From Bartonella taylorii 8TBB (GTDB taxonomy: Bacteria > Pseudomonadota > Alphaproteobacteria > Rhizobiales > Rhizobiaceae), in the NCBI RefSeq assembly GCF_902825155.1, contig NZ_CADEAG010000001.1, positions 248,001 through 312,000 on the forward strand: a DNA stretch of 64,000 nucleotides. Reading direction: 5' to 3'. The notes beneath the pieces are model-generated. The model was not told the origin of the DNA. It saw only the letters and a list, made by a program, of their open reading frames with translations, and searched no databases. The position numbers and the translations under genes are program-made. The number at the start of each line of letters is the position of its first letter. The first letter of the stretch is position 1. This document shows positions 32,045 to 33,198 of this stretch, one piece after another.

Positions 32045-32348
32045 GTCTGCGTAGCTCAGTAGGATAGAGCACAGGATTCCTAAAGAAATTGGGCGCTTTA
32101 AGGAGAAATCCTCAAAGTGGATCTGCTCAAATTCGGGGAAAGCTTTATGGGGGACTCCCATGCCAATCCCGAGCCAAGCCTCTCTTCAAAGGAGAGGAAG
32201 GTGTAGAGACTGAACGGGCAGCGCCTAAAGAGCGTAAGCTTCAAGGTGAAGAGACAGTCCAGACCACAAACAGTCTGTAAAGCTGGCGGTGAAAATCGAA
32301 GTGGTATGAATCCTGGGGTCGCAGGTTCGAATCCTGCCGTAGACACCA
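32045..32348 (+). tRNA. tRNA-Arg (anticodon CCT) interrupted by an intron
   Basis: Two exons form a full cloverleaf with encoded CCA: 32045-32081 and 32309-32348, 77 nt when joined. The acceptor strands GTCTGCG and CGTAGAC pair (one G-T), the D-arm is GCTC...GAGC, the anticodon stem CAGGA/TCCTG closes a loop TTCCTAA with anticodon CCT, and the T-arm is GCAGG-TTCGAAT-CCTGC. The interruption falls directly after the last anticodon base, between positions 36 and 37. This is the insertion site of the self-splicing introns known in tRNA-Arg(CCU) of other alphaproteobacteria. The gene decodes AGG codons. Confidence 0.95.
32082..32308 (+). ncRNA. Group I self-splicing intron (IC3-like) in tRNA-Arg(CCT)
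   Basis: 227 nt, no open reading frame for an endonuclease. The 5' exon ends in U and the intron ends in G, as required. P1 can form from CCU|AA with UUGGG (32089-32093), putting a U-G wobble at the splice site. A GAAA-capped hairpin follows (P2, near 32100-32112). A P6-like hairpin CCTCTC/GAGAGG is at 32179-32197, and P7 is GACTG (32208-32212) with CAGTC (32255-32259). Conserved core strings such as CTCAAATTCGG, GAGCCAAGC and AAGGTGTAGAGACT correspond to the Azoarcus tRNA-Ile intron as I remember it. Splicing activity is inferred. Confidence 0.9.
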
Positions 32349-32392: not shown

Positions 32393-32788
32393 ATGAAAAA
32401 AACTCTACATATTTTAGGATTTTTGACCGCTTCAAGTCTATTTCTCTTTAGTTCAGGAAATACCTTCGCTGCTTCTTTAATCATTGAAGTACCAGACAAC
32501 CCAGAGCCAACAACACGAACTATTGCCTACCAATGTGATACTGGAAAAAGCAAAGAACGCGTTGAAGCGATCTATCTCAATGCCGATAATATTTCATTGG
32601 TTGATTTCAAATGGAAAGGTGATCGCGTTATTGCTGCAAATGTCATTGCCGACACAGGGAAAAGATACGAAGGAGCGCAGTATATTTGGTGGGAAATGAA
32701 CAACGAAGTCAAACTTCATGATCGTATTCGTGATCCAGAAGGAAAAGAACTCATCCGCTGTAAGGATGAATCAACGTTATTATTCTAA
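32393..32788 (+). CDS. MliC-like lysozyme inhibitor family protein, copy 1
   Basis: 131 residues: signal peptide (about 1-27, ending near TFAA) and a small beta-rich domain. The pattern AYQCDTGKSKERVEAIYLN, then ISLVDFKWKGDRVIAANVIADTGKRYEGAQYIWWEMNNE split by charged loops, and a late Cys (IRCKDE) fits the MliC/PliC domain (C-type lysozyme inhibitor), with two cysteines able to bond. It would act in the periplasm or outer membrane against host lysozyme; there is no lipobox. The adjacent gene is a paralogue. A ribosome-binding site AGGGAAG precedes the ATG. Confidence 0.72.
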   Translation: MKKTLHILGFLTASSLFLFSSGNTFAASLIIEVPDNPEPTTRTIAYQCDTGKSKERVEAIYLNADNISLVDFKWKGDRVIAANVIADTGKRYEGAQYIWWEMNNEVKLHDRIRDPEGKELIRCKDESTLLF

Positions 32789-32805: not shown

Positions 32806-33198
32806 ATGAAAAAAAATTTTTTTAATTTACAATTTTTAGCCGTTTTGAGTTTGTCCCTGTTTAACTCAATCAGTGCTTTTGCTGGCTCTTTGGTCATTGA
32901 GGTACCAGACGATCCAGAACCAACAAAAGAAACCGTTATCTATCAATGCAGTGCTGAAACAAAAAAAGAACGTGTTGAAGCAACCTACTACAATGCCGGT
33001 GAGATTGCACTCGTTGATCTCAAATGGAACGGAAAGCGCGTCATAGCTTCCAATGTCATTGCTGCTTCTGGAGCAAAATATGTGGGAGGTGAATATGTTT
33101 GGTGGACAAAAAAAGATGAGGCGACATTTTATAACCTCATTAATGATCCAAAGGAAGAAATGCCGCTCAACTGTGTAGAAGAAAAAGGCACAGAATAA
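32806..33198 (+). CDS. MliC-like lysozyme inhibitor family protein, copy 2
   Basis: 130 residues, a tandem paralogue 17 bp after copy 1. Signal peptide 1-27 ends at SAFA. The mature part shares IEVPDDPEPT, YQCSAETKKERVEATYYNA and the terminal C (LNCVEE) with copy 1. It is closer to the classical MliC core, with ASGAKYVGGEYVWWTKKDEA matching the conserved SGxxY...WWxKGxxA motif in which Ser and Lys contact lysozyme. Convergent with mnhG, leaving 16 bp between stops. Confidence 0.78.
   Translation: MKKNFFNLQFLAVLSLSLFNSISAFAGSLVIEVPDDPEPTKETVIYQCSAETKKERVEATYYNAGEIALVDLKWNGKRVIASNVIAASGAKYVGGEYVWWTKKDEATFYNLINDPKEEMPLNCVEEKGTE

What the first reader, a model, noticed from the sequence alone, without database searches (positions are those of the whole stretch)
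32045..32348. tRNA-Arg(CCU) gene split by a 227-nt group I intron
The exons join into a perfect 77-nt tRNA with the break directly after anticodon base 36. The insert has a U at the 5' exon end, a terminal G, a P1 with U-G wobble, and complementary P7 arms (GACTG/CAGTC). Long stretches match what I recall of the Azoarcus tRNA-Ile intron. Introns in tRNA-Arg(CCU) are known from Agrobacterium and other alphaproteobacteria, so this is a new host example and not a new class. It is notable in a reduced, host-restricted genome, where the sole AGG-decoding tRNA would depend on a ribozyme. Default tRNA finders and ORF callers miss or mis-annotate this locus.
Basis: partly seen in the sequence, partly recalled or inferred. 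Interest (0 to 1): 0.75.

Follow-up and report, generated by a model that had tools for sequence, protein, structure and literature searches.

The report
Self-splicing intron in Bartonella tRNA-Arg
A tRNA gene in a Bartonella genome is interrupted by a small RNA that should cut itself out; the arrangement is real, but the same intron in the same gene has already been described and shown to splice in another Bartonella species.

Summary
tRNA-Arg(CCU) lies at 32045-32348; a 227-nt group I intron (32082-32308) splits it after anticodon base U36. Rfam RF00028 scores 60.5 bits (cut-off 50). ARAGORN finds the gene only with introns allowed. A 67-pair group I fold fits 37 genus sequences: 94.5% of cells paired, 23 pairs with two-sided changes. 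The guide GGG pairs with the anticodon CCU. All 40 genus genomes seen carry it at the same site; the genus is Bartonella. Five relatives from other families of the order have the tRNA joined exactly there. It is not new: PMC7717549 (2020) describes this intron in Bartonella bacilliformis tRNA-Arg(CCU), self-splicing in vitro and spliced in vivo. Two side claims weaken: tRNA-Arg(UCU) is present, so CCU need not be the sole AGG reader, and the intron occurs widely in the family, so it probably predates genome reduction. Side finding: a related intron in an unannotated tRNA-Leu(UAA)-like gene, beside aac(3)-IId in the two plasmids opened, is on 1257 of 72,556 plasmid records.

The parts
32045..32081 (+). 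5' exon of tRNA-Arg(CCU), ends with anticodon base U36
   Evidence: ARAGORN with introns allowed and on joined exons; same exon boundary in 37 of 37 genus sequences
32082..32308 (+). group I intron, 227 nt, ends with G; the 63-aa ORF at 32089-32280 is taken as mechanical
   Evidence: RF00028 60.5 bits at 32072-32280; boundaries; ORF list
32309..32348 (+). 3' exon of tRNA-Arg(CCU) with encoded CCA
32091..32093 (+). internal guide GGG; pairs with anticodon CCU 32079-32081 (P1, U-G at splice site)
   Evidence: invariant in 37 of 37
32088..32090 (+). ATT, can pair with the first 3 bases of the 3' exon AAT 32309-32311 (P10)
   Evidence: 37 of 37, invariant so no covariation
32095..32118 (+). P2 hairpin with GAAA loop
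   Evidence: 7 of 10 pairs with two-sided changes; 89.1% of cells paired, two pairs weak
32123..32128 (+). P3 5' strand; partner 32216-32221
   Evidence: 100% of cells paired, 4 of 6 pairs vary on one side only
32133..32137 (+). P4 5' strand; partner 32168-32172
   Evidence: invariant, all paired
32142..32163 (+). P5 and P5a
   Evidence: P5 98.6% paired; P5a only 66.5% in this alignment, poorly supported
32174..32201 (+). P6 and P6a
   Evidence: P6a 5 of 6 pairs with two-sided changes, P6 1 of 2
32208..32212 (+). P7 5' strand GACTG; partner CAGTC 32255-32259 (guanosine-binding helix, function recalled)
   Evidence: invariant in 37 of 37
32223..32247 (+). P8
   Evidence: 3 of 7 pairs with two-sided changes
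32263..32305 (+). P9, P9a, P9b
   Evidence: P9a 3 of 4 and P9b 1 of 4 pairs with two-sided changes, P9 none

Best explanation
A functional tRNA-Arg(CCU) gene interrupted by a small self-splicing group I intron of the bacterial tRNA-intron type. The precursor RNA folds so that the guide GGG holds the anticodon CCU. A bound guanosine cuts after U36, the freed U attacks after the terminal G, and the exons join into a 77-nt tRNA that reads AGG (these steps follow from what is established for group I introns). Shown here: gene, boundaries, conserved fold, presence in all genus genomes seen, intron-free relatives. Shown elsewhere for a congener: self-splicing in vitro and splicing in vivo. Inferred: splicing in this species. 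The intron was probably already in the tRNA beside aroB before Bartonella arose and has been inherited vertically in the genus since.
For: Rfam hit; exact tRNA; 40 of 40 genus genomes seen have the boundary after TTCCT and a terminal G (37, 3 more); 67-pair structure with controls; P1, P4, P7, P10 invariant while P2, P6a, P8, P9a change; exact intron-free joins of tRNA-Arg(CCU) in 5 of 7 relatives fetched from the 24 order genomes (chosen because their exon matches lay close together; the other two were a TCT tRNA and a mis-hit); none of those 24 gave a match through the intron; no second match covering both exons in any of 37 genus genomes, 8 of them listed as one contig; published splicing of the Bartonella bacilliformis homologue (PMC7717549, passages and one section read). 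Shared place: a match to aroB upstream in 33 of 37 genus loci (four show none, three only fragments) and in 7 of 21 family loci outside the genus.
Against: No RNA data for this species. The Bartonella introns are not recovered as one clade in the tree with family members: 3 changes, or 2 without Acetobacteraceae; one clade is not rejected (AU p 0.325 and 0.338). Three Acetobacteraceae introns fall inside the Bartonella-Tokpelaia group, on long branches with a warning, so horizontal exchange is not excluded. P4, P7, P1 and P10 give no covariation, being invariant.
Confidence: 0.97

Rival explanations
1. A decayed, no longer splicing intron in a dispensable tRNA; AGG is read by tRNA-Arg(UCU).
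For: tRNA-Arg(UCU) is present; AGG is rare, 34 of 16,135 codons in 42 long ORFs of the window.
Against: Exons and catalytic core are near-invariant in 37 genus sequences while peripheral helices change with compensating pairs; a congener's intron splices.
Confidence: 0.02
2. The intron was acquired more than once in Bartonella, or exchanged with other bacteria, rather than inherited throughout.
For: Patchy distribution in the family: 65 of 394 genomes match at E<=1e-10, not all of them through the exons. Bartonella rows are not one clade in the best tree, and three Acetobacteraceae introns fall among them.
Against: All 40 genus genomes seen have it; one clade is not rejected; aroB neighbourhood in 33 of 37 loci, also in Candidatus Tokpelaia and other kin.
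Confidence: 0.1
3. Another kind of insert: group II intron, IStron, archaeal-type tRNA intron or assembly artefact.
For: None found.
Against: RF00028 match, group I helices, no ORF of 60 aa or more inside it except a 63-aa one from TTG on this strand, same insert in 40 genome records of the genus.
Confidence: 0.005

Closest known systems
BbgpI, group I intron of Bartonella bacilliformis tRNA-Arg(CCU) (PMC7717549)
   Same: Same genus, same gene, flanked by CCT, group I helices, unannotated tRNA found only after removing the intron; self-splices in vitro, spliced in vivo (section 20 read).
   Different: Another species; the published gene spans 308 nt, this one 304. Intron lengths in 37 genus sequences run 224-278 nt.
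tRNA-Arg(CCU) introns of Agrobacterium and other alphaproteobacteria (Paquin et al. 1999, cited in PMC7717549; the paper itself is not held, and was not seen)
   Same: Same gene and, by PMC7717549, same family. In the tree, 19 family rows and 13 other Arg(CCU) rows (two of them identical to family rows) stand with Bartonella against 3 Leu introns, support 100/99.
   Different: Distribution elsewhere is patchy; in Bartonella it is in every genome seen.
Bacterial tRNA group I introns in tRNA-Ile(CAU), tRNA-Leu(UAA), tRNA-fMet (PMC3984707, passages seen; PMC8450103, passages seen)
   Same: Small group I introns in bacterial tRNA genes; a core word of this intron is shared by at least 119 stretches of genome contigs (capped), of which 80 contigs with 81 places were scanned.
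   Different: Different host tRNA and break point.

Membership tests
Group I intron (Rfam RF00028) | Covariance-model score above the curated cut-off | tested here: met
   60.5 bits against 50, full model 1-253
Group I intron (Rfam RF00028) | 5' exon ends with U paired to G of an internal guide; intron ends with G | tested here: met
   U-G in 37 of 37, terminal G in 37 of 37
Group I intron (Rfam RF00028) | P3-P8 and P4-P6 domains with P7 | tested here: met
   P4 and P7 are invariant, so supported by pairing and by the model, not by covariation
Group I intron (Rfam RF00028) | Guanosine-dependent splicing | not testable with these tools
   self-splicing shown for the congener in PMC7717549, not for this species
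tRNA-Arg(CCU) intron family of alphaproteobacteria | Host tRNA-Arg(CCU), break after base 36 | tested here: met
tRNA-Arg(CCU) intron family of alphaproteobacteria | Groups with other Arg(CCU) introns in a tree | tested here: met
   100/99 against 3 Leu introns. In the wider tree of 107 introns the Arg(CCU) rows sit in a group of 35 that also holds 3 Leu and 1 'His' row, support 93/91, not starred
IC3 subgroup | Subgroup-specific tertiary contacts | not tested
   the label would rest on recalled resemblance to Azoarcus

The most novel reading that the evidence does not exclude
The intron is kept for a use: its guanosine-dependent splicing, or the excised RNA itself, tunes the supply of the AGG-reading tRNA in Bartonella, which is why none of the 40 genus genomes seen has lost it.
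Probability: 0.05. Interest if true: 0.6.

Novelty: already known. Interest (0 to 1): 0.18.

Why it matters
It corrects annotation: the gene is silent to default tRNA finding, so a Bartonella genome can look as if it lacked tRNA-Arg(CCU). Presence in all 40 genus genomes seen, against a patchy distribution in the family and intron-free relatives in the order, makes a tidy case of a group I intron that became fixed. The side finding may matter more: the same intron type travels unannotated on common resistance plasmids.

Tried and rejected
Tried without result: default ARAGORN and the Rfam tRNA model on the locus; phage collection (one 44-base match to 5' exon letters, no intron); first paper search with Bartonella and tRNA-Arg (0 papers; PMC7717549 does not print 'tRNA-Arg'); RF00028 on the plasmid loci (below cut-off).

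Considered and rejected: decayed intron, other insert types, assembly artefact (see rivals). P10, P1, P4 and P7 are invariant, so I do not count them as covariation support. P5a is weak. ARAGORN labels such as Ser, Phe, His or Stop for related introns may be register slips and are not used as host assignments. Two family rows labelled His (L245, L257) show AGGAT, TCCT and an insert reaching GGTATG before AA, as in Arg(CCU); they were left out of the tree, as was L243 (no ARAGORN call). Of the 81 pattern places scanned, the tree left out 12 without a tRNA call, 3 with called introns over 300 nt, and 2 Bartonella contigs that repeat genomes already in; from the order hits it left out L085, L086 and L094. 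It used 16 of 37 genus rows plus L087 and L133. Of 119 loci returned (L114-L193) were scanned for tRNAs; the other 39 were not.

Full report
The finding holds to the base. tRNA-Arg(CCU) spans 32045-32348, with an insert of 227 nt at 32082-32308 directly after U36. The joined exons give a 77-nt tRNA with encoded CCA and one G-U pair in the acceptor stem. ARAGORN by default reports only tRNA-Gly in the window; with introns allowed it reports this gene exactly. Rfam RF00028 scores 60.5 bits, E 7.1e-13.

Structure. Thirty-seven genus sequences, all distinct, were aligned. I wrote a 67-pair group I fold by hand on the window sequence: P1 to P9 with P5a, P6a, P9a, P9b, and P10. It pairs 94.5% of 2475 cells; 23 pairs change on both sides, and 0 of 500 shuffles reach any of the five measures. 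Slid partners pair 30-46% of cells. The fold was derived while looking at these sequences, which favours it over the slid versions, and related sequences inflate the shuffle control, as the tool warns. P1, P4, P7 and P10 never vary, so their support is from pairing and the Rfam model. P5a is poorly supported (66.5%). Folding the whole gene gives z -2.50. The guide GGG at 32091-32093 pairs with the anticodon CCU, U-G at the cut. The three bases before it, ATT, can hold the first three bases of the 3' exon.

Distribution. One search covered 61 genomes: all 37 of the same genus match through the insert, and one search shows the same boundaries in 37 of 37. Three further genus genomes (G408, G735, G771) show it, so 40 of 40 genus genomes seen; searches do not list all genomes without a match. 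The genus is Bartonella: named contigs (Bartonella queenslandensis, 335,125 bases; Bartonella vinsonii subsp. arupensis, 1,167,482 bases) have the same lengths as G032:C2 and G010:C1. The species of the window was not determined; its intron is 99% identical to that of G013. Of the 24 order genomes outside the genus, none gave a match through the intron. I fetched 7 of them whose exon matches lay close together: 5, from five families, have tRNA-Arg(CCU) joined exactly where the intron would sit; one is a TCT tRNA joined likewise and one is a mis-hit. In the family, 65 of 394 genomes match at E<=1e-10, 8 of them of the genus; 35 outside the genus span both exons, others cover only part, and G449 shows the two exons side by side without an intron. 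Of 22 fetched outside the genus, ARAGORN Arg(cct), 2 His in what looks like a shifted register, and 1 nothing. RF00028 alone is less sensitive: 42 of 397 order genomes, in various tRNAs.

History. Arg(CCU) introns stand together against three Leu introns (100/99). Bartonella, Candidatus Tokpelaia and a few other family members form a starred group, into which three Acetobacteraceae introns also fall on long branches. A match to aroB lies upstream in 33 of 37 genus loci and in 7 of 21 family loci outside the genus (L243 was not examined). One Bartonella clade is not in the best tree but is not rejected (AU p 0.325; 0.338 without Acetobacteraceae); one clade of the four Acetobacteraceae is not rejected either (p 0.282). 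Vertical descent within the genus is therefore likely, not proven.

Dependence on the ribozyme. The genome (236 contigs, 36 Rfam tRNA matches) has tRNA-Arg(tct), (ccg) and (acg) besides the split gene. The list shows no tRNA-Ile(gat) and no tRNA-Ala(tgc), so it is incomplete. No intact CCU copy was found here, nor a second match with both exons in any of 37 genus genomes. AGG occurs 34 times in 16,135 codons of 42 long ORFs of the window. tRNA-Arg(UCU) can read AGG by wobble (recalled), so 'sole AGG reader' is too strong.

Prior knowledge. [quoted passage not shown] Of 3 papers in the library that hold both 'group I intron' and 'Bartonella', it is the only one whose title or abstract bears on the subject (listing seen). 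The kind, the gene and the splicing are thus already known; this window adds a further species.

Side finding. The intron matches, at 60-80% identity, DNA on 1272 of 72,556 plasmid records. In pCTX-M3 (L063 3952-4246) I read it as a complete tRNA-Leu(UAA) gene with a group I intron after U34, next to an AAA ATPase gene and aac(3)-IId; the neighbours were looked at in two records only. The 295-base gene is held at 80% or more of its length in one place by 1257 of 72,556 plasmid records and by 624 of 5,426 complete Escherichia coli genomes. The nearest chromosomal place among the loci held is Enterovirga aerilata, 92% over 353 bases, which suggests an alphaproteobacterial source for this piece. 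Four paper searches (listings seen, and passages of one paper) gave no report of it.

Noticed in passing
L063 3952-4246 (pCTX-M3, NC_004464.2); also L064: Unannotated tRNA-Leu(UAA)-like gene split by a related group I intron, beside an AAA ATPase gene and aac(3)-IId in the two records opened; at 80% or more of its length on 1257 of 72,556 plasmid records and in 624 of 5,426 Escherichia coli genomes. Nearest chromosomal kin held: Enterovirga aerilata, 92% over 353 bases.
   Followed up: partly
L114-L193: A core word of this intron type occurs in at least 119 stretches (capped), with record titles from Proteobacteria to Acidobacteria, Chloroflexi, Planctomycetota and actinobacterial genera. Of 81 places on the 80 contigs scanned, ARAGORN gives 24 Leu taa, 14 Arg cct, 10 Met cat, 21 others and 12 none. 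The labels are unchecked, those beyond Leu, Arg and CAU most of all.
   Followed up: partly
L159, L160, L177 (Acetobacteraceae): Arg(CCU) introns of Commensalibacter, Gluconobacter and Neokomagataea fall within the Bartonella-Tokpelaia group; possible exchange, but long branches, and one clade with Acetobacter is not rejected.
   Followed up: partly
window 32393-32788 and 32806-33198: Two tandem genes for MliC-like lysozyme inhibitors follow the tRNA; a match to the first lies downstream in 29 of 37 genus loci, the other 8 having at most about 510 bases of downstream DNA held.
   Followed up: no
L051, L053, L056, L058, L060, L061, L070: aroB upstream of the tRNA is not matched, or only in part, in these genus loci (L070 has only about 500 bases upstream); possible decay of the gene in some Bartonella.
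   Followed up: no
G203:C36 10660-10912 and 12146-12405: Two strong RF00028 matches about 1.5 kb apart in one genome of the order; no tRNA called at the one fetched (L085).
   Followed up: no
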